A DNA stretch of 7,509 nucleotides. Source: Caldifarciminota bacterium (lineage in GTDB: Bacteria; WOR-3; Hydrothermia; WGAB01). Below, piece by piece: positions 1 to 7,509 of the stretch. How positions within the stretch are numbered: the stretch's first letter is position 1; each line of letters begins with the position of its first letter. The notes beneath the pieces were generated by a model. It saw only the letters and a list, made by a program, of their open reading frames with translations. It had not been told where the DNA came from and did no database searches. The stretch spans positions 1-7,509 of the forward strand of contig WGAB01000308.1 of the NCBI GenBank assembly GCA_015489295.1, written 5' to 3'. Both the position numbers and the translations under genes were made by a program.

Positions 1-23
1 CCCCTGCTCCGGGAGCCTGTGCC

Positions 24-1322
24 ATGACCCACGCCTTTTTCCTGCTCTCGCCCCTGATCGACACCCGGCCCTTTGAGGCCATGCAGTACTTCTTCAGCAT
101 CCTGTTGCCCACCGCCGTGATGCTCCTCATCCTGGGGCGGTGGCTTCTGGAGTTTGCGCTGTCCGACCGGGCCGTGGAGGTGCTCACGCCACCGGAACTC
201 TGGTTCCTGGCCTTTCTCGTGTACATGGCGCTCTTCGGCGTGCTCCTATCGGTGCCTTTGATGGGCCGGGAGATCCTGGGCGAGACCGGCATGGTCAAGA
301 GCGTGAAGCAATCCATCATGGTGGGCATCGCCGTCATGTTCTTTTTGGTGTCGGTGCGGATCGGCCGGCGGGAACGCCTGGAAACCGTGTATCGGGCCCT
401 GCTCTGGACCCTGGGCGCGCTCCTGGGGTACGGCCTGCTGGAATACCTGGAGTATGTGTACGGCGTGCCGCTGCTGCGGCCCATAGAGTACCTGCTGCAT
501 CCCCTGAAACCCGTGAGCGCGTATGGCCTGTACAGCGAGCGGCTGCGGCTGACCACGCCGGAGCCCTCCATGGCCGCTCCGTATCTCGTGATCTACGGGC
601 TCCTTGTGCTCTTCCTCCGGCAGAAACTGGGCAAGCGAGGGCTCGGCGTGCCCCTGCTGCTTCTGGCCGTGCTGGTGCTGCTCCTGGTGCTCGGCTCCAA
701 GGGGGCCCTGGTGAGCCTCCTCCTGGGCCTGTTTGTCACCACCTGGGTGGCCACGCCCTTCCTGCCGCGGCGGCTGGGGCGCGGCCGCATCTTCTGGGGA
801 AGCCTGGTGCTCTTCCTCGTGCTCACCGGCCTTTCGCTGGTATCCAAAACCGGCCGCGAACTCATGGCCCTGAGCGTCTACGAAAACACCGTGCTCACCC
901 GGGCCATTGAGATGCTGGTGGGGCTCAAACTCTTCGTGGAGCACCCGGTGTTCGGCATCGGCGCCGGCAACCTGGTGTTCTACTTCAACGACTACCTGAA
1001 CCGCGTGGGCATCATCAGCCAGGAGCTCTTCTGGGTGTTGAAGGGCCTGAGCAGCGATGTGGCCCTGGGCTACAAGAATCTGTTCATCGCCGTGCTCGCC
1101 GAAGGCGGGCTCGTGGGCTTTTTCCTGTTCGCCGGGTTCCTGGGCAGCGTGTTTCGGCAACTGCTGCGCACCCTGCGGCACGACCGCGCCGGCCTGTACC
1201 TCGTGCTGATCTTCGTGTTCATCCTGGGCACCATGATGTACACCGACGGCTTCAACCGCATCTACTGGTGGATCGGCCTGGGGCTTGTGGCCGGCCTCAG
1301 CCAGCGGTTTTCGGCGCCATGA
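24..1322 (+). CDS. O-antigen ligase/polymerase-family membrane protein (WaaL/Wzy-like)
   Basis: A 432-residue, very hydrophobic inner-membrane protein with about ten to twelve predicted membrane segments. It probably joins or polymerises lipid-linked polysaccharide on the periplasmic face of the inner membrane. Seen: a segment with GSKGALVSLLLGL (residues 224-236), the family's usual 'GSRG' helix; EHPVFGIGAGN (306-316), the loop typical of the Wzy_C domain; and YKNLFIAVLAEGGLVG (350-365), the usual 'h..yl..l.E.Gl.G' helix, followed by a last pair of helices near 391-427. The large periplasmic loop lies around 273-350. The ATG at 24 has GGGAG eight bases upstream, but the frame is open to the window edge, so an upstream start cannot be excluded. 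The end overlaps the flippase start (ATGA). Ligase and polymerase share this fold and cannot be told apart here. Codon use is GC-rich, like the flippase. Confidence 0.85.
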   Translation: MTHAFFLLSPLIDTRPFEAMQYFFSILLPTAVMLLILGRWLLEFALSDRAVEVLTPPELWFLAFLVYMALFGVLLSVPLMGREILGETGMVKSVKQSIMVGIAVMFFLVSVRIGRRERLETVYRALLWTLGALLGYGLLEYLEYVYGVPLLRPIEYLLHPLKPVSAYGLYSERLRLTTPEPSMAAPYLVIYGLLVLFLRQKLGKRGLGVPLLLLAVLVLLLVLGSKGALVSLLLGLFVTTWVATPFLPRRLGRGRIFWGSLVLFLVLTGLSLVSKTGRELMALSVYENTVLTRAIEMLVGLKLFVEHPVFGIGAGNLVFYFNDYLNRVGIISQELFWVLKGLSSDVALGYKNLFIAVLAEGGLVGFFLFAGFLGSVFRQLLRTLRHDRAGLYLVLIFVFILGTMMYTDGFNRIYWWIGLGLVAGLSQRFSAP

Positions 1323-2581
1323 CCCCCGTGTTCAGCCGGAAGGTGGGCCGCGACATCGCCTCCATTGCCGGAGGCCTTTCCTATGCCCGGCTGGTCCGGT
1401 TCGTGTTCTTCATCCTGCTGGGCCGGGCCATCGGCCCCCAGGCCCTGGGCGTGTACGCGGCCATCGTGGCCTTCATCCGCATCGTGGCGCCTTTGGCCAA
1501 CGGCGGCCTGCCCCATCTGTTTGTGCAACACCTGGCTGTTCACCGTGAGAAACCCTCGCCCCTCTTTCTGACAGGGTTTCTCGCCGCCCTGGTGAACTCC
1601 CTGCTGGCCGCCGCGGTGGGCACCCTGGGCTTTTCCCTGTTCTTCCGGTTCCTGTTGCCGCCAGGCATCATCGCCCTCTTCATCTTTGTGGAGGTGCTGC
1701 TGGCCAGCGGCCTGGAACTCTTCAAGGGCCTGTACCAGGGCCTGGAACGGTTCCCGCTGATCTCCTGGGTGATCTACTTCCTGTTTCCCACCCTGCGGCT
1801 GGCCGTGCTGGCGAGCCTTTTCCTTTTGCAGGGGCCCGAACTGGAACTCGCCCGGATCCTCGTGCTCCTGGAGCCGCTCCAGTTCCTGGCTCTGGTGCTG
1901 GTGTTCTTCTTTACGCTGCCGCGGCGGCTCTTCGTGGCCCGGCTGGACCCCGGGGCCCTGAAGCGGGGCCTGCCCTTCGCCCTGTCCACGACCTCCACCG
2001 AGATCTACGGCAATGTGGACAAACTCATGCTCTCCAAACTCGCCACTTCCTTTGTGGTGGGCGTGTACACCGTGGGGTTCCGCATCGTGCAGTACCTGCT
2101 GTTTCCCGTGATGTCGGGCCTTACGGTGTTTTATCCCAAGTTCTTCCGCCGGGGCACGCGGGGGCTCGGCGAAACCCTGCGCCTGGGCCTGGCCGTGCTG
2201 CCCTTCAGCATGGGCTACGCGGTGCTTGTGGTCCTCGCCCTGGCCCTGGTGGGGAAATGGGTGATCCTCTGGCTCTTCGGCGCCCGCTACGCGCCGGCCG
2301 TGGGGCTGATGCGCGTGCTCAGCCTCACCCTGCTGGTGCGGTCGGTGAGCCTGGTGCTGGGGGATGCGCTGACCGGTGCGGGCTATCAGGTGAAGCGCAC
2401 CGCGGCCATCTTTGTGGCCGTGGGGGTGAACTTCGTGCTGAACCTGGTGTTGATCCCGATCTGGGGCGGCTACGGTGCCGCCTGGGCCACGGTGTTTTCA
2501 GAGGTCTTTTTGCTCGGGGCCTTCCTGTACCTCATCTGGCGGTACCGCCACGCCGTACCACCACCGCCACGCACTTCTTGA
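1319..2581 (+). CDS. Polysaccharide flippase, Wzx/RfbX (MOP superfamily)
   Basis: A 420-residue membrane protein of the MATE/MOP exporter type. Such proteins flip undecaprenyl-linked sugar units across the inner membrane. Seen: an N-terminal amphipathic start followed by SYARLVRFVFFILLGRAIGP (21-40) and GVYAAIV (44-50), the usual 'a...g..llaR.LGp..fG.y' opening. A central STEIYGNVDKLMLSK (226-240) precedes VGVYTVGFRIVQYL, the conserved 'd...lg.l.....vG.Y..a.ri' block. LNLVLIPIWGGYGAAWATVFSE (374-395) matches the family's 'LIP.yG..GAA.AT' signature. About twelve helices are expected. I chose the ATG at 1319 because its ATGA overlaps the preceding stop and gives a normal N-terminus. An in-frame start at 1268 would add 17 atypical residues lying entirely within the upstream gene. 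There is no clear ribosome-binding site, so translation is probably coupled. The last 50 bases overlap the convergent Wzz gene. Confidence 0.9.
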   Translation: MTPVFSRKVGRDIASIAGGLSYARLVRFVFFILLGRAIGPQALGVYAAIVAFIRIVAPLANGGLPHLFVQHLAVHREKPSPLFLTGFLAALVNSLLAAAVGTLGFSLFFRFLLPPGIIALFIFVEVLLASGLELFKGLYQGLERFPLISWVIYFLFPTLRLAVLASLFLLQGPELELARILVLLEPLQFLALVLVFFFTLPRRLFVARLDPGALKRGLPFALSTTSTEIYGNVDKLMLSKLATSFVVGVYTVGFRIVQYLLFPVMSGLTVFYPKFFRRGTRGLGETLRLGLAVLPFSMGYAVLVVLALALVGKWVILWLFGARYAPAVGLMRVLSLTLLVRSVSLVLGDALTGAGYQVKRTAAIFVAVGVNFVLNLVLIPIWGGYGAAWATVFSEVFLLGAFLYLIWRYRHAVPPPPRTS

Positions 2582-3617
2582 TGCCGGCGTCCTGCAGGAG
2601 TTGGAGGATCCGCTGGACCTCCGATTTCCCGGTTTGATCGGCCACCAGAAAACAGAGCGCGGCCTCGGCGCCGGGATAGGCCACGAGGGCCGTGGCCCGG
2701 TCGGGCAGCGGCCCCACCGGATGCCAGCCCTCCAGGAGCCGGTCCAGGTCTTCGCCCACGGCCTCCTGCAGGATCCGCCGCACCTCCTCTTCCCGGAGGC
2801 CCTGGAACCACAGGAGCAGCCGGGGTGCCGAGGCCAGCGAGAGGTCCACGAAGGCGTGCTTCAGGGCCTCGGCCTCCTCCGGGAAGCCCAGGGGCTCCAG
2901 GTCCTGGCTCAGGAACAGCAGGTCCAGGGGATCCCGCACCTGCCGGCGCCGGAGTTCCCGCCAGGAGAAGAAGAGGAACCCCAAAAGGGACGAAAGGAAG
3001 AGCGTCAGCAGCACATTCAGGGTGGTTTTGGGGCTGGCCTTCTTTTCGGGCGGATACGGAGGGTCCAGCACCTTCACAAAGGGCTTGATGGGGCTGATCT
3101 TCAGGGTGTCGTTCAGGGCTTCCACCACCCGCAGGTACTCCTGCACGATGCGGGCCGAAAGCCGGGGATCGCGTTCCCGGAAGCCCACGACGATGGTGCC
3201 CAGGGTTAAGTCGGTTTCCACCTTCAGGCGGTCCTGGGCCTTCTTCAGCAGGAAATAGCGGGAGGTGTCGTGCCACAGGGTGTCCAGCCGCAGGTTGCGG
3301 ATCACCGACCAGGAAACGCGGTCGCTCTGGAACAGGGCCATAACCACCTCGGAGGAGGTACCGCCCTCACTCAGGCCAGGTACCAGGCTCTTGAGCCAGC
3401 CGGCCCCGGCCAGGAGGTCCTGGGAGGGCGGCAGCAGCACGGCCCGGGCCTCGTAGGTTTTGGGGATCACGAAGAGGGAGAGCAGGCCCATGACGAAGCC
3501 CAGCGCCAGGGCCACCTGGGCGGTGGGGCGCCAGGTCTTGCGCACGAGGGCCCGCAGCACCCGGGAACTCAACCGGAACCCGGTACCCCGTTCTTCGGTG
3601 TGCAGTTCTCCAGCCAT
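2532..3617 (-). CDS. Wzz/GumC-type polysaccharide co-polymerase with a degenerate BY-kinase-like tail
   Basis: A 361-residue inner-membrane protein of the chain-length determinant (Wzz/PCP) family, which sets polysaccharide length together with a Wzy polymerase. Seen: a basic N-terminus, a first membrane helix (about 33-51), then YEARAVLLPP (55-64), the usual beginning of the periplasmic domain. A Pro-rich DPPYPPEKKASPK (185-197) sits just before the second helix (about 200-217), the hallmark of the family. The 140-residue cytoplasmic tail ends in CFLVADQTGKSEVQRILQLL (322-341) and then CVAVVVRR, which resembles the last strand-helix-strand of CpsD/Wzc-type tyrosine kinases ('viLVv..g.T....v..al.lL...g..v.GvVlN'). 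No Walker A or Tyr-rich tail is present, so it is probably not catalytic. Ribosome-binding site GGAG (3629-3626) is eight bases before ATG. It lies 15 bases after the endonuclease gene and converges with the flippase. Confidence 0.85.
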   Translation of the reverse strand: MAGELHTEERGTGFRLSSRVLRALVRKTWRPTAQVALALGFVMGLLSLFVIPKTYEARAVLLPPSQDLLAGAGWLKSLVPGLSEGGTSSEVVMALFQSDRVSWSVIRNLRLDTLWHDTSRYFLLKKAQDRLKVETDLTLGTIVVGFRERDPRLSARIVQEYLRVVEALNDTLKISPIKPFVKVLDPPYPPEKKASPKTTLNVLLTLFLSSLLGFLFFSWRELRRRQVRDPLDLLFLSQDLEPLGFPEEAEALKHAFVDLSLASAPRLLLWFQGLREEEVRRILQEAVGEDLDRLLEGWHPVGPLPDRATALVAYPGAEAALCFLVADQTGKSEVQRILQLLQDAGIKKCVAVVVRRGGTAR

Positions 3618-3625
3618 CGGCGTTT

Positions 3626-3639
3626 CTCCGATTCAGGCG
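3626..3639. repeat. 14-base direct repeat, copy A (Wzz side)
   Basis: CTCCGATTCAGGCG, identical and in the same orientation as 5893-5906. Read on the minus strand it contains the endonuclease stop codon (TGA, 3635-3633) and the GGAG ribosome-binding site of the Wzz gene. Confidence 0.8.
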
Positions 3640-4496
3640 GCCAGGTCCAAGGGCAAATCTGCGATGTCCCTCAAACGACGGCCGTCAACCATCGTGTGAA
3701 ACAGGTCCAGCAAGCCTCGCTCGCCATGCGATGGTGCATACGCCTGCAGTGCTTGCTCCAGCTCGGGTAAGGCCACATGGTAAACGCAGTCCAGATCGCC
3801 GGTGCCCAGGGCTAACGAAGCCAAACGGTTGGGATGGGGTTCAGCGGTGACGACGACGATGTGGGGGGTATGCCCTTTGCGGTTGCGGATGAGATTCAGG
3901 GCCTCGGTACGGACGTTCTGGGCGCGATCGCTACGCATGGTCCATTTACAGGATATGCTGGCGTGGAGGAGCAGATGTTCGTTGTTGACCTTTCGTAGAG
4001 GGGTGAGGTACGCAATGTCCCGTTGATTGGGGTTCAAGAGTTTTTGGTTCTGGTTGATCTGGGCATCTTCCAGAGGGCGTCGAGCGATCACGATGTCCGG
4101 ATGAATGAGATAGTCCCCCAACGCTGCATGCAAATCTGGATGGGTTCGTAAGGCAGCTTTTAAATCTGCCAGGTGCTGATACTGGTCGAAGCGGTGCAGG
4201 TCGCCGGAGACTTCAAAGAGCCAGGGACCTGGGCGTAAATGGTGAAGCCTGGCAAACGCCTCTTTCAGAAAATCCAGGGTGACGCTCTCGAACGATTTGC
4301 CCACGGTTTGGGGGGGCTTTGCCTGGGCCGGGGGTTTGGCTCGTAGAAGGCGACAGACGCGTTGCCACATTTCCCTGGCCAGAGTAAGGCTGGCTCGGTT
4401 GCTCCGGTCTGCATTGTTGGGCACCCCGTTCACGATGCTCAAGACCTCAGAGCACAGGCGGCGGTGGTACTTGTCTCGGAGGCGCGTCCATTCCAT
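3633..4496 (-). CDS. Type II restriction endonuclease, NgoMIV family (predicted GCCGGC)
   Basis: A 287-residue protein, almost exactly the length of NgoMIV (286, from memory), which cuts GCCGGC as a tetramer. Seen: P133-D134, then a long spacer to S182-C183-K184, and E198. This is the PD...SxK...E variant active site of the NgoMIV/Cfr10I/Bse634I group. SCKWTMRSDRAQN (182-194) carries the R188-S189-D190-R191 motif, which in NgoMIV contacts the central CCGG. E70 and Q63 fall at the positions I recall for NgoMIV, where Gln63 and Arg227 read the outer G:C; R224 here is the likely equivalent of Arg227. All hallmark residues are present, so it should be active. The ATG overlaps the methyltransferase stop (TAATG), so methylase is made first. 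The stop codon lies inside a 14-base repeat that brackets the cassette. GC is lower than the neighbouring polysaccharide genes. No controller gene is visible. Confidence 0.92.
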   Translation of the reverse strand: MEWTRLRDKYHRRLCSEVLSIVNGVPNNADRSNRASLTLAREMWQRVCRLLRAKPPAQAKPPQTVGKSFESVTLDFLKEAFARLHHLRPGPWLFEVSGDLHRFDQYQHLADLKAALRTHPDLHAALGDYLIHPDIVIARRPLEDAQINQNQKLLNPNQRDIAYLTPLRKVNNEHLLLHASISCKWTMRSDRAQNVRTEALNLIRNRKGHTPHIVVVTAEPHPNRLASLALGTGDLDCVYHVALPELEQALQAYAPSHGERGLLDLFHTMVDGRRLRDIADLPLDLAA

Positions 4497-5830
4497 TATG
4501 CGGCTCCTCTGGGTTTCATAAACCCCAGGACGTACTCCTGGTGCATCCGCCGTTCAATTTGGGAATCCCCGGGTTGATGCCGGGCGGGCATCATGCGCCG
4601 GTTGCGATCCAGGCGCCGCACGCCGGTATGGATCCATTCCAAACCCACCTGCTGTCCAATTGCGGCAAGGGCCTCAGGGGTTTGGGTTGAACGTCCCCGC
4701 ATCGTGCTGTCGCCCACCACCACCACGGCAAAACCTCCGGGCTGCAGCACCCGGGCCATTTCCAGCAGTACCCGGCGCATTTCCGAGAAATACCGATGCA
4801 GGACCTTGCCCTTTTTGGGGTCCAGGTCGGCAATGGCCTGTACGGCCTGCTGGGCTTCCTTTGGGAGGGGTTCCAGAAGCACACCGTGGGTTGTTTCCCC
4901 ACCAATGTACTCCCTTCGCATAGCGCTGAGCTGGCGTATCGAGTAGCCCCACCAGACCAGGGTAAATTTGTGGGCCCGCATGTAGTCAATGGCGTTGCTG
5001 GCATAGGGCGGTGAGGTCACGATGAGGCGCACGCGGTTCTCCGGAAGCGGCAGCGCTTGCGCATCGCCCTGCCACAGGGCGCAGGTAAGGGGCGTACGAA
5101 CCTCCGTGCGGAGCAGGATTTGGGCCAGACGCAAACCCCGCTCTCGAAAGGCTGCCAGAGCGGAACGGGGGGTTCTTTGGATCCGGTGGGGCCGGGTGTG
5201 GGACAGATCTCGGGCCAGAGCGACGCTCCCTCCTTTCGCAATGATGATGCCCGAGAAGGTCACCCGTAACCAAACCTTGAGATTCTCGTCTTCCTCTTCG
5301 TTGATGGCCTTGCTCAAAGCAAGCAGTTCTTGCTGCGTTTTTGGGAGGAACCAGTAGTCCAGGAAACGGCGGGTTTCTTCGTCGAAGGCCTTTTCCCAAG
5401 AGTGCAGCAACTCCTGGCTTTGGTTTAGGAGGCTTTCGGCCTGATGGGCCACGCGATTCACAGCCTTCGCCAGCAAGGTAGGGGGTACCGGATGGCATTT
5501 CGCCCAGGCAACTTGCAGGGCCAGGGGATCGATGTCTCCGCCCAGGGCCACGCGACCGGCATACGCTGCCTCGACTACGGTGGTGCCCGATCCCATCATC
5601 GGGTCCAGCACCCAGTCCCCGGGCCGGGTCAGATTTTGAATAAACAACCGAGGCAGTGCAGGGGGGAACTTGGCCGGAAACGGATGAACACGATGAAGGG
5701 CTGGATCCGCATGGTGATGAAAATCCAGGTCGCTTTTCAGCAATGCCTGGAAACGCTTGGAGGCTTCTTCCACATTCTCGGGGGGTGGTGTAGATTCTCG
5801 CCACAGTGGAAACAGGGATTGTTCAAACAT
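4496..5830 (-). CDS. Site-specific DNA amino-methyltransferase (probably N4-cytosine) of the restriction-modification pair
   Basis: A 444-residue methyltransferase that should protect the partner endonuclease's sites using S-adenosylmethionine. Seen in order: HPFPAKFPP (49-57, motif X-like), VLDPMMGSGTT (74-84, motif I), GDIDP (98-102, motif II), a helical stretch of about 170 residues, then LIVTSPPYASNAIDYMRAHK (269-288, catalytic motif IV), and VLQPGGFAVVVVGDS (361-375). TSPPY is usual for N4-cytosine enzymes. Motif I before IV with a long insert suggests the alpha-type order. I chose ATG at 5830 because GAGGAG (5842-5837) lies six bases upstream and motif X sits at a normal distance. Alternative starts at 5848 (ATG) and 5869 (GTG) lack a good site and lie closer to, or upstream of, a possible -10 box. 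The NgoMIV partner enzyme is, as I recall, a 5-methylcytosine type, so this pairing is not the standard one. Confidence 0.9.
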   Translation of the reverse strand: MFEQSLFPLWRESTPPPENVEEASKRFQALLKSDLDFHHHADPALHRVHPFPAKFPPALPRLFIQNLTRPGDWVLDPMMGSGTTVVEAAYAGRVALGGDIDPLALQVAWAKCHPVPPTLLAKAVNRVAHQAESLLNQSQELLHSWEKAFDEETRRFLDYWFLPKTQQELLALSKAINEEEDENLKVWLRVTFSGIIIAKGGSVALARDLSHTRPHRIQRTPRSALAAFRERGLRLAQILLRTEVRTPLTCALWQGDAQALPLPENRVRLIVTSPPYASNAIDYMRAHKFTLVWWGYSIRQLSAMRREYIGGETTHGVLLEPLPKEAQQAVQAIADLDPKKGKVLHRYFSEMRRVLLEMARVLQPGGFAVVVVGDSTMRGRSTQTPEALAAIGQQVGLEWIHTGVRRLDRNRRMMPARHQPGDSQIERRMHQEYVLGFMKPRGAA

Positions 5831-5836
5831 CAGCCT

Positions 5837-5842
5837 CTCCTC
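5837..5842 (-). promoter_or_regulatory. Ribosome-binding site of the methyltransferase gene
   Basis: GAGGAG read on the minus strand, six bases before the ATG at 5830. It decides between three in-frame starts. Confidence 0.7.
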
Positions 5843-5860
5843 GCCCATGTCGCGTGTTGT

Positions 5861-5866
5861 AGTATA
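5861..5866 (-). promoter_or_regulatory. Possible -10 box of a cassette-borne promoter
   Basis: TATACT on the minus strand matches TATAAT in five of six bases, with a predicted +1 near 5854 and a leader of about 24 bases to the methyltransferase ATG at 5830. No acceptable -35 lies 15-18 bases upstream. It may be weak, activator-dependent or chance. Confidence 0.35.
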
Positions 5867-5892
5867 CACACTCCGCCCCCGTAGAAATCCAC

Positions 5893-5906
5893 CTCCGATT
5901 CAGGCG
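5893..5906. repeat. 14-base direct repeat, copy B (promoter side)
   Basis: Identical to 3626-3639. It lies just after the stop of the small leader ORF (5913) and upstream of the methyltransferase. The flanking bases differ on both sides from copy A, so the match is exactly 14 bases. Confidence 0.8.
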
Positions 5907-5912
5907 TACCTG

Positions 5913-6011
5913 CTAAGTTGTCATCCACCGGGCCCAGAGTTTCTCGGGGGTCAGGCCGAAACGCTGAAAATCCCACAGCTTCGGGGGAAATCGGACCGGG
6001 AATCCGCGCAC
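5913..6011 (-). CDS. Possible 32-codon leaderless small gene or leader peptide
   Basis: A GTG-started ORF of 32 codons ending in TAG. Its first base is exactly the predicted +1 of the strong promoter at 6018-6046, so the message would be leaderless. The peptide is basic and aromatic, with three Trp, two KLW tripeptides and the C-terminus ARWMTT. I counted 23 of 32 third positions as G or C, compatible with the host's coding style. I do not recognise a family. It ends seven bases before repeat copy B, so before the cassette arrived it would have been the gene directly in front of wzz. It could be a leader peptide, a small protein, or chance within an untranslated leader. Confidence 0.35.
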   Translation of the reverse strand: MRGFPVRFPPKLWDFQRFGLTPEKLWARWMTT

Positions 6012-6017
6012 GCCGCA

Positions 6018-6046
6018 ATTATAGATGAGCGGTTTTCAGGGGTCAA
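6018..6046 (-). promoter_or_regulatory. Strong sigma70-type promoter driving the leader and restriction-modification/wzz operon
   Basis: On the minus strand: -35 TTGACC (6046-6041, five of six), a 17-base spacer, and -10 TATAAT (6023-6018, six of six). Predicted +1 is 6011. It lies after the thioredoxin-like gene (ends 6081) and before the small ORF, the methyltransferase, the endonuclease and the Wzz gene, all in the same direction. It is outside the repeat-bounded cassette, so it probably belonged to wzz originally. Confidence 0.75.
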
Positions 6047-6048
6047 CA

Positions 6049-6075
6049 CAGCGCGTTTTTCGCTCTGCCGCGCTG
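6049..6075 (-). terminator. Hairpin after the thioredoxin-like gene, possible terminator
   Basis: CAGCGCG (6049-6055) and CGCGCTG (6069-6075) form a perfect seven-pair stem with a 13-base loop. It sits six bases past the stop codon of the minus-strand gene and just upstream of the -35 box at 6046. There is no T-run after it on the minus strand, so it is not a standard intrinsic terminator. Confidence 0.35.
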
Positions 6076-6080
6076 CCGGG

Positions 6081-7052
6081 CTACGGAAGCACCGCCACCT
6101 TGCCGGTGTGGTTCAGCAGGCGATAGACATACACTCCGGGCCTGAGGTGCAGGGTGTGCCGGCCGTTGCCGATCCGCCGGCGCAGCACCAGGCGGCCGGT
6201 GGCATCGTACACGCTCAGGGGCGCCGGCCGGGCCAGTCCCTGCACCGAGAGCCGCACCTCCCGGCCCACCGGTGTCGCCCGAAGCCGCAGGCGAGAGGCA
6301 ACGGCACGGTTCTCCTCGGCCACGCCCACCCATTCCAGGTCATCCAGGAAGAACAGGGGATGGGCGCCCAGCACCTCCCGGGTGTCGTCGCGCTGCACGA
6401 ACACCACAAAGGCGATCTCGTGGGGGTTATCGGTGGACGGGACCGTGAACGGCTGGGCCACGGAAACACTGTCGCCCGGCGCGAGGCTCACGGGCACGCC
6501 AGCAGAATTGGGCACCATGTCCCGCACCACCCAGTAAAGGTGGCTGTGCCCCTGCCAGGCGTAGGGGGTATCCACCAGCACGGTATAGACCCGGAGCTGG
6601 CCGGACCAGGCGGTTTCCTCGCCCACGTGTTTCACCCAAACCTGGAGGGTGCCCTGGAGCGCGTTGGCATGGTACACGCCCCCCAGGGAGAACTGTACCG
6701 GCTGGTCCACGGTTTTCCGCAGGTCAAACATGCTGCGGTAATGGCTGTAGGCGTCGGTGGAACTGGTGTAGTGGAGCACGCCGTCGGCGTACACCGTGGG
6801 AATGTACTCCACCCCATAGTAGTTGTAGCGGGTGTGGGCTTCCCACTGGTAAAAGGGGTCGCCGTTGGCATGGATCCCCGCGATCACCAGGGAATCGCCC
6901 ACCTCGTGCTGGAGTTGCTCCAGGGCCGGGGCCGCCACACCGCAGGGGCCGCACCAGGTGGCGGTGAAGTCCTCAAAGAGCACGGTCCGCTGAAGGGCAT
7001 GGACCGGCAGGGCCAGTGCCACCAGGATTACCATCCAAGGGAACGCTTTCAT
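6081..7052 (-). CDS. Exported thioredoxin-fold (Omp28-like) protein with a C-terminal sorting-type domain
   Basis: A 323-residue predicted exported protein. Seen: a signal peptide MKAFPWMVILVALALPVHA (1-19), then VLFEDFTATWCGPCG (24-38) with the redox pair C34/C37, and the cis-proline YIPT (83-86), so a thioredoxin fold of about 100 residues. A beta-rich middle (about 108-240) contains IAFVVFVQRDDTREVLGA (203-220), resembling Omp28-related proteins of Bacteroidetes. The last 70 residues, with LSVYDATGRLV and LRPGVYVYRL, look like a type IX secretion/FlgD-like C-terminal domain. It is likely a cell-surface or secreted thiol-disulfide protein; its substrate is unknown. I chose ATG 7052 because GGGAGGTG lies just upstream (7063-7056) and the signal peptide begins there. 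A GTG at 7082 would put ten charged residues in front. It is alone in its transcription unit, divergent from tsaB. Confidence 0.88.
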   Translation of the reverse strand: MKAFPWMVILVALALPVHALQRTVLFEDFTATWCGPCGVAAPALEQLQHEVGDSLVIAGIHANGDPFYQWEAHTRYNYYGVEYIPTVYADGVLHYTSSTDAYSHYRSMFDLRKTVDQPVQFSLGGVYHANALQGTLQVWVKHVGEETAWSGQLRVYTVLVDTPYAWQGHSHLYWVVRDMVPNSAGVPVSLAPGDSVSVAQPFTVPSTDNPHEIAFVVFVQRDDTREVLGAHPLFFLDDLEWVGVAEENRAVASRLRLRATPVGREVRLSVQGLARPAPLSVYDATGRLVLRRRIGNGRHTLHLRPGVYVYRLLNHTGKVAVLP

Positions 7053-7096
7053 CCGCACCTCCCGGTTTGGGGAGCGAAACACGCTCCGGGTTAGTC
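7053..7096 (-). promoter_or_regulatory. 44-base 5' leader of the thioredoxin-like gene with a hairpin
   Basis: From the predicted +1 (7096) to the ATG. GGAGCG (7087-7082) pairs with CGCTCC (7076-7071) around a TGTTT loop. An outer CCC (7090-7088) can pair with GGG (7063-7061), the first bases of the ribosome-binding site. This could modulate translation, but the helix is short and the role is inferred. Confidence 0.4.
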
Positions 7097-7102
7097 ATGC
7101 TC

Positions 7103-7131
7103 ATCTTAGCCTAACAAACCCAATTTGTCAA
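7103..7131 (-). promoter_or_regulatory. Promoter of the thioredoxin-like gene
   Basis: Minus strand: -35 TTGACA (7131-7126, perfect), a 17-base spacer, and -10 TAAGAT (7108-7103, four of six). Predicted +1 is 7096, a G. Confidence 0.7.
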
Positions 7132-7135
7132 ATTG
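7121..7135. promoter_or_regulatory. 15-base palindrome over the -35 box, candidate operator
   Basis: CAATTTG-T-CAAATTG is a perfect inverted repeat with a one-base centre and covers the TTGACA of the minus-strand promoter. Its AT-rich composition stands out in this GC-rich window. It sits between two divergent genes, which is usual for a repressor site. The regulator is unknown. Confidence 0.5.
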
Positions 7136-7151
7136 AGGGGGGACCGGCCGG

Positions 7152-7180
7152 TTGTGCCCGAGAGAGCCGGTGCGTAGAAT
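7152..7180 (+). promoter_or_regulatory. tsaB promoter giving a predicted leaderless transcript
   Basis: -35 TTGTGC (7152-7157, three of six), a 17-base spacer, and -10 TAGAAT (7175-7180, five of six). The predicted +1 is 7187, the A of the tsaB ATG. No ribosome-binding site lies upstream of that ATG. Confidence 0.55.
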
Positions 7181-7186
7181 TGGGCC

Positions 7187-7509
7187 ATGCCAGGTTGGGT
7201 GCTGGCCATTGAGACCTCCGGGCCCCTCGGCGGCGCGGCTCTTTGGCACCCGGAAAGCCATCGGGGGGCCGAGGCGAGCCTGGAAAAGCCCTTTCACCAC
7301 GCCGAAGACCTGCCCGGACTGGTTCAGGGGCTCCTGGACGGGTTCGGCGTCGGCTTTGCCGATTTCGCTCTTGTGGCTGTGGTGCGGGGCCCGGGGTACT
7401 TCACCGCGCTGCGGGTGGGCGTGGCCTACGCCAAGGCCCTGTGGCTGGCCCGCCGGGTGCCGGTGGTGGCCCCCACCGGCCTGGAGGTGCTGGCCTTTGA
7501 GGCCTCGGA
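7187..7509 (+). CDS. tsaB: tRNA N6-threonylcarbamoyladenosine (t6A) biosynthesis protein TsaB, 5' part
   Basis: The first 107 codons of a TsaB-like protein, cut by the window edge. TsaB is the non-catalytic partner of TsaD in the complex that places t6A at position 37 of ANN-reading tRNAs in the cytoplasm. Seen: WVLAIETSGPLGGAALW (4-20), the usual 'iLaidTs....svAl' opening of the ASKHA fold; then VVRGPGYFTALRVGVAYAK (65-83), matching 'GPGSFTGLRIG.a.akgL'; then VPVVAPTGLEVLA (90-102), matching 'v.v.gvssLe.la'. The motif carries Tyr for Ser and Ala for Gly (GPGYFTALR), a mild departure. An in-frame TAG at 7175-7177 limits the start to the ATG at 7187. It diverges from the thioredoxin-like gene, with about 130 bases between start codons. 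Confidence 0.9.
   Translation, partial: MPGWVLAIETSGPLGGAALWHPESHRGAEASLEKPFHHAEDLPGLVQGLLDGFGVGFADFALVAVVRGPGYFTALRVGVAYAKALWLARRVPVVAPTGLEVLAFEAS

What the first reader, a model, noticed from the sequence alone, without database searches (positions are those of the whole stretch)
3626..5906. Perfect 14-base direct repeats bracket the restriction-modification cassette
CTCCGATTCAGGCG occurs at 3626-3639 and again at 5893-5906, just outside the endonuclease and methyltransferase genes, with unrelated flanks. A 14-base match at both edges of a gene pair is very unlikely by chance. Collapsing the repeats rebuilds promoter, leader ORF, GGAG and wzz start without a scar. This suggests the cassette inserted into the leader of a polysaccharide gene and may be excisable. 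No recombinase is carried inside.
Basis: partly seen in the sequence, partly recalled or inferred. Interest (0 to 1): 0.8.

Follow-up and report, generated by a model that had tools for sequence, protein, structure and literature searches.

The report
Restriction-modification cassette with 14-bp target duplication
A two-gene DNA-defence cassette in an uncultured bacterium sits between two identical 14-base repeats, and a close relative shows the same site without the cassette and with a single repeat, so the cassette appears to have landed there cleanly, as other restriction-modification systems are known to do.

Summary
The repeat is real. CTCCGATTCAGGCG occurs exactly at 3626-3639 and 5893-5906 and extends no further. 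In a close WOR-3 relative (L001, JALXEF010000114.1), the flanks meet at one 14-mer: window 1-3639 aligns gap-free at 97.6% and 5893-7509 at 91.7% with 14 gaps, overlapping in L001 by exactly the 14 bases 6871-6884. The 2253-bp insert holds an N4/N6-type methyltransferase and an NgoMIV-family endonuclease. Its GC3 is 0.67-0.68, against 0.83-0.90 in five neighbouring genes. The endonuclease matched in 0 of 147 genomes of the relative's phylum, a search without positive control. Terminal inverted repeats were not detected, and no listed ORF of the insert looks like a recombinase (by eye). Best reading: horizontal insertion of an R-M unit with a 14-bp target duplication, between the promoter/leader and the ribosome-binding site of wzz. 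The wzz-side copy keeps the wzz Shine-Dalgarno and holds the endonuclease stop codon. R-M insertion with target duplication is already published, so this is a new member of a known kind. Joining mechanism, present-day excisability and final polarity are not shown.

The parts
3626..3639 (+). wzz-proximal copy of the 14-bp direct repeat; on the - strand CGCCTGAATCGGAG: holds the last Ala codon and TGA stop of the endonuclease gene and the GGAG Shine-Dalgarno of wzz
   Evidence: exact match; ORF and sequence
5893..5906 (+). promoter-proximal copy of the 14-bp direct repeat, at the end of the wzz leader
   Evidence: exact match; single exact copy in L001's genome, at L001 6871-6884
3640..5892 (-). 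inserted R-M cassette (2253 bp; unit incl. one repeat 2267 bp), GC 0.592 against 0.655/0.659 in the flanks
   Evidence: absent between the same flanks in L001; composition
3633..4496 (-). type II restriction endonuclease, NgoMIV family, 287 aa; ends at the same alignment column as 17 of 17 other homologues aligned
   Evidence: PF09015 331 bits; PDB 1fiu 261 bits with the SCK motif conserved; alignment A2
4496..5830 (-). DNA methyltransferase, N4/N6 class (TSPPY motif; class reading of the motif is recalled), 444 aa from ATG at 5830 (GTG at 5869 possible); its stop overlaps the endonuclease start (TAATG)
   Evidence: PF01555 79.6 bits; PADLOC MTase_II; translation
6018..6046 (-). sigma-70-like promoter TTGACC-17-TATAAT of wzz, the same in L001
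   Evidence: 11 of 12 consensus positions; 1 site found against a shuffle mean of 0.7, so the count alone is not above chance; both hexamers unchanged in the alignment with L001
5913..6011 (-). short leader ORF (GTG, 32 aa in the window, ends TAG before the repeat; 37 aa in L001, ends TGA inside the repeat)
2532..3617 (-). wzz-like chain-length determinant, 361 aa, displaced from its promoter by the cassette
   Evidence: PF02706 E 8.5e-4, 20 bits, below the cut-off of 25.5; 95% identical protein in L001

Best explanation
A horizontally acquired NgoMIV-type restriction-modification pair inserted in the window's lineage, co-directionally, into the 5' untranslated region/leader of a wzz-like gene. 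The 14-bp target CGCCTGAATCGGAG was duplicated. Shown: an allele without the cassette and with one copy, the exact junctions, the foreign composition. Inferred: the target was cut with a 14-nt stagger (or a replication fork switched template into the donor and back 14 nt upstream), a linear R-M fragment was joined, and gaps were filled by host repair without a recombinase in the cassette. This is the class published as R-M insertion with target duplication. Consequence (inferred from sequence): the wzz promoter and leader now read into MTase-REase-wzz. The wzz-side copy keeps the wzz ribosome-binding site just downstream of the endonuclease stop, so wzz need not be silenced. The confidence is for insertion with a duplicated target; the joining route is left open between this and the first rival, so the confidences overlap.
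For: Empty site in L001: window 1-3639 to L001 10509-6871 without gaps (97.6%), window 5893-7509 to 6884-5270 (91.7%, 14 gaps), overlap exactly 14 bases. The 14-mer has one exact copy in that genome. No match to the MTase in that genome (0 of 1) and none to the REase in 147 genomes of the phylum. GC3 0.677/0.674 in REase/MTase against 0.83-0.90 in five neighbouring genes. MTase and REase relatives are listed with the same longest-contig lengths (2761, 71934, 16743, 29852, 4061), which suggests that the pair travels together. Published precedent, seen in passages.
Against: Only one relative with the empty site was reachable, and it is a MAG contig (coverage 3.2 by its title). Precise loss in L001 is not excluded. 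The REase stop codon lies inside the repeat, at the natural end of the protein in 17 of 17 other homologues aligned (18 of the 120 listed proteins were aligned, one of them the window's own). On a pure target-duplication model that is a coincidence and may hint at donor/target microhomology. No donor DNA was available to settle it. The absence searches rang in no genome, the 14 control genomes included, so they lack a positive control.
Confidence: 0.8

Rival explanations
1. Short-homology integration: the donor DNA itself carried all or part of CGCCTGAATCGGAG at the end of the endonuclease gene, and a circle (or a template switch) recombined with the matching leader sequence, giving direct repeats without a staggered cut.
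For: The repeat contains the last codon and stop of the REase, which ends at its natural length. Reciprocal crossing-over at 1-3 bp identity between an R-M plasmid and the chromosome has been observed (PMC3031569 passages).
Against: A 14-bp match between an unrelated donor and the target is improbable unless the donor came from an earlier insertion at the same site. The three closest homologues end in Ile, Val and Ile, not Ala, so the last Ala codon may be the target's. No donor DNA is known; the closest DNA in plasmids covers only 8-10% of the query, within the REase.
Confidence: 0.25
2. Site-specific integration by a recombinase acting in trans (or since lost), the 14-mer being the core of an attachment site.
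For: Precise single-copy empty site and intact flanks are also what integrases leave.
Against: No recombinase-like ORF in the insert (by eye); no inverted repeats at the insert's ends. The site is a 5'UTR, not a tRNA gene. No second use of the site seen: one exact and one 1-mismatch copy in G001 (about 0.7 expected by my own estimate).
Confidence: 0.07
3. Transposition of a transposon-like R-M unit with terminal inverted repeats by a trans-acting transposase.
For: R-M units with short target duplications and imperfect terminal inverted repeats are described (PMC3874152 passage).
Against: Ends share no inverted repeat above chance: best local scores are reached by 782-989 of 1000 shuffles at 30, 60 and 150 nt.
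Confidence: 0.04
4. The cassette is ancestral here and L001 lost it precisely by recombination between the repeats.
For: Precise excision yields the same empty sequence; direct repeats permit it.
Against: No REase match in 147 genomes of the phylum (no positive control), low GC3, and the repeat is a part (SD, leader stop) of the empty locus.
Confidence: 0.1

Closest known systems
R-M insertion with long target duplication (Nobusato et al. 2000, Helicobacter pylori)
   Same: R-M genes inserted in one strain relative to another, with a duplicated target (seen in passages of PMC1643837 and PMC3031569; the 2000 paper itself not looked up and not read)
   Different: Duplication here is 14 bp, not of the order of 100 bp (figure from a passage of PMC3874152); host is a WOR-3 bacterium
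Transposon-like R-M units with short target duplications and imperfect inverted repeats (Furuta et al. 2010, as cited in PMC3874152, passage)
   Same: Short target duplication around an R-M unit
   Different: No terminal inverted repeats detected here; Furuta et al. itself could not be read
PabI-family R-M insertion with 4-bp target site duplication (PMC10273834 passage)
   Same: R-M homologue apparently inserted with a short target duplication
   Different: There a 4-bp target deletion accompanied it; here no deletion is seen at the target
NgoMIV type II restriction endonuclease (PDB 1fiu)
   Same: Endonuclease is a full-length family member
   Different: Partner is an N4/N6-class MTase with the TSPPY motif; NgoMIV's own partner is a C5-MTase by recall. 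Cleavage specificity untested

Membership tests
R-M insertion with target duplication | Direct repeats immediately bracketing an R-M unit | tested here: met
R-M insertion with target duplication | Related genome lacking the R-M unit with a single copy of the repeat at the orthologous site | tested here: met
   L001
R-M insertion with target duplication | Long (order of 100 bp), variable duplication (the 'long' form only) | tested here: not met
   14 bp only; filed under the general class, not its 'long' form
R-M insertion with target duplication | Repeat derived from target, not donor | tested here: inconclusive
   Repeat is native to L001, but donor DNA is unknown
Transposon-like R-M unit | Terminal inverted repeats | tested here: not met
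Integrase-mediated genomic island | Recombinase gene within the element | tested here: not met
   ORF list shows no candidate by eye; only the two main ORFs scanned against family libraries
NgoMIV endonuclease family (PF09015) | Profile match over full length above cut-off | tested here: met
   331.4 bits against cut-off 23.2, residues 10-286
NgoMIV endonuclease family (PF09015) | Cleaves GCCGGC (site by recall) | not testable with these tools
   0 GCCGGC sites in the cassette, 11 in the flanks is only suggestive

The most novel reading that the evidence does not exclude
A self-contained R-M unit without inverted repeats or recombinase that lands by microhomology between its own endonuclease stop codon and a host leader stop codon, so that each landing keeps the endonuclease complete, restores the downstream ribosome-binding site and captures the host promoter: a frame-preserving, operon-building mode of R-M mobility.
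Probability: 0.1. Interest if true: 0.6.

Novelty: new member of a known kind. Interest (0 to 1): 0.38.

Why it matters
It is a clean natural with/without pair for R-M movement in an uncultured phylum (a search for 'WOR-3' together with 'restriction-modification' in the held library gave 0 papers). The natural cases of target-duplicating R-M insertion that the passages I saw name are from Helicobacter. It also shows how such an insertion can sit inside a probable transcription unit while leaving the downstream gene's translation signals whole. How R-M units without their own recombinase move remains open, and donor-side sequences of this family would test it directly.

Tried and rejected
Terminal inverted repeats were sought at 30, 60 and 150 nt with and without the repeats: none above shuffles (one search gave 996 of 1000 shuffles at 60 nt). 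A sharp recombination breakpoint at the insertion was sought in the identity profile against L001. In 250-base steps the wzz side is 95.2-99.6% and the Omp28 side 86.8-95.2%, the step across the site 93.2%, with no sharp break there, so arrival on a long homologous segment is neither shown nor excluded.

Other empty sites were sought. DNA 5893-7100 matched in 7 of 147 genomes, but only G001 with a long match (1717 bits); the rest are 23-81-base matches of 43-46 bits that I did not follow. The wzz alignment matched in 82 of 147 genomes, best G001 (638 bits), then G002 (196 bits); of the 15 loci fetched I read only the one of G002 (L067). There another gene lies upstream of wzz, I saw no such leader, and one search lists no DNA match in G002, so it says nothing about polarity. 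The family of G001 holds 2 genomes. The 77% relative P0002 and P0003-P0005 did not turn up as DNA, whose two peptide patterns gave one locus only.

Generality test in viral contigs: 52 loci with NgoMIV relatives, 42-53% identical, but only 2 of 52 (L004, L006) had an MTase match over 150 residues in the DNA held, so no test of this pair was made. Nearest DNA in phages and plasmids covers at most 10% of the query. MTase relatives in plasmids and phages are under 60% identical, REase relatives in plasmids too.

Cluster sizes (wzz cluster 10 member sequences, REase and MTase clusters 2 each) would fit a cassette present in a minority of the population. Assembly fragmentation and cluster thresholds could give the same, so it is not used as evidence. 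Paper searches were seen as listings; of the papers they list I read passages of PMC10273834 alone.

Full report
Observation. The 14-mer CTCCGATTCAGGCG occurs at 3626-3639 and 5893-5906, both exact, and cannot be extended. Flanks of 40 bases match at only 5 and 10 positions. By itself a 14-base repeat in 7.5 kb of this composition is not remarkable: 90 of 300 simulated sequences hold one, and the window holds two others. None of 300 placed one at both edges of the gene pair, and the analytic expectation is about 8e-5.

The empty site. A scan of genome contigs with an alignment of the wzz protein (six sequences) returned one locus, L001, contig JALXEF010000114.1 of a WOR-3 MAG, with a 95% identical protein. 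BLASTN of the window against it gives two blocks: 1-3639 on 10509-6871 (97.6%, no gaps) and 5893-7509 on 6884-5270 (91.7%, 14 gaps). The blocks overlap in L001 by 6871-6884, which is the 14-mer, present once. Base-level alignments run through the repeat from both sides without a gap at it. On the wzz side the first difference follows 7 matching bases; on the leader side there is a substitution 5 bases and a one-base indel 7 bases before the repeat. The 14-mer occurs once exactly in that 2.1-Mb genome, and once more with a mismatch.

What was inserted. The cassette is 2253 bp. The endonuclease (3633-4496, 287 aa) matches PF09015 with 331 bits and NgoMIV itself, PDB 1fiu, with 261 bits over residues 4-286, with the SCK motif conserved. 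The methyltransferase (4496-5830, 444 aa) matches PF01555 and type II MTases of PADLOC; its stop overlaps the endonuclease start (TAATG). Relatives of the two proteins are listed with the same longest-contig lengths, e.g. 2761 and 71934. GC3 is 0.677 and 0.674 against 0.83-0.90 in wzy, wzx, wzz, the Omp28-like gene and tsaB. The MTase was not found in L001's genome (0 of 1), nor the REase in 147 genomes of the phylum, nor PF09015 in L001's genome or 14 control genomes. None of these searches had a genome known to match, so they are weak as absence. No ORF in the insert suggests a recombinase (by eye; the minor ORFs were not scanned).

Anatomy at the site. In L001 a promoter (TTGACC-17-TATAAT; the same hexamers in the window at 6046-6018, where the scan's count of 1 is not above its shuffle mean of 0.7) is followed by a GTG-started ORF of 37 codons whose TGA lies in the 14-mer, then GGAG and the wzz ATG. 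In the window the ORF ends at TAG, 5913-5915, just before the repeat, at a one-base indel. The cassette is co-directional with wzz. On the - strand the wzz-side repeat reads CGCC TGA ATC GGAG: it holds the last Ala codon and stop of the endonuclease and the Shine-Dalgarno of wzz. So the landing keeps both neighbouring genes' signals whole. That MTase-REase-wzz is one transcript is inference.

How it got there. The anatomy is that of insertion with target duplication. No terminal inverted repeats were found and no transposase, so a classical transposon is disfavoured. Two routes remain that I cannot separate without donor DNA: a staggered cut with fill-in, or a switch/recombination guided by short homology between the endonuclease end and the leader end. 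The 17 other homologues aligned end at the same column as this endonuclease, 8 of 17 with Ala last, but the three closest with Ile, Val and Ile (18 of the 120 listed were aligned, P0006 being the window's own). The stop inside the repeat is therefore a coincidence on the first route and a possible cause on the second. My confidences overlap: 0.8 is for insertion with a duplicated target, and the first rival is partly a route to the same outcome.

Known background. From passages only: R-M systems can insert with long and variable target duplications (PMC3031569; PMC1643837). Some insert with short duplications and imperfect inverted repeats, others with about 100 bp (PMC3874152). A PabI homologue appears to have inserted with a 4-bp duplication and a 4-bp target deletion (PMC10273834). 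The primary papers (Nobusato 2000, Furuta 2010) were not read. The case is therefore a new member of a known kind, with 14 bp, no inverted repeats, and a landing that keeps the reading frame and ribosome-binding site.

What is not shown. Excision, activity and specificity of the enzymes, transcription of wzz through the cassette, and the direction of change beyond parsimony. One relative only was available.

Noticed in passing
5913-6011 (-); L001 6764-6877: A short GTG ORF starts about 7 bases after the -10 box of the wzz promoter (possibly leaderless) and is largely kept between window and L001, with an in-frame 3-base indel; it may be a real leader peptide (VRGFPVRFPPKLWDFQRFGLTPEKLW...). 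Its 3' end is frameshifted in the window relative to L001.
   Followed up: partly
3640-5892: No GCCGGC (NgoMIV site by recall) in the 2.25-kb cassette, against 11 in 5.3 kb of flanks; lower GC explains part of it.
   Followed up: partly
2532-2581: The wzz and wzx-like genes converge and overlap by 50 bases at their 3' ends; the overlap is also present in L001.
   Followed up: no
window against L001: Nucleotide identity is 95.2-99.6% on the wzz/wzx/wzy side but 86.8-95.2% on the Omp28/tsaB side of the cassette, in 250-base steps.
   Followed up: partly
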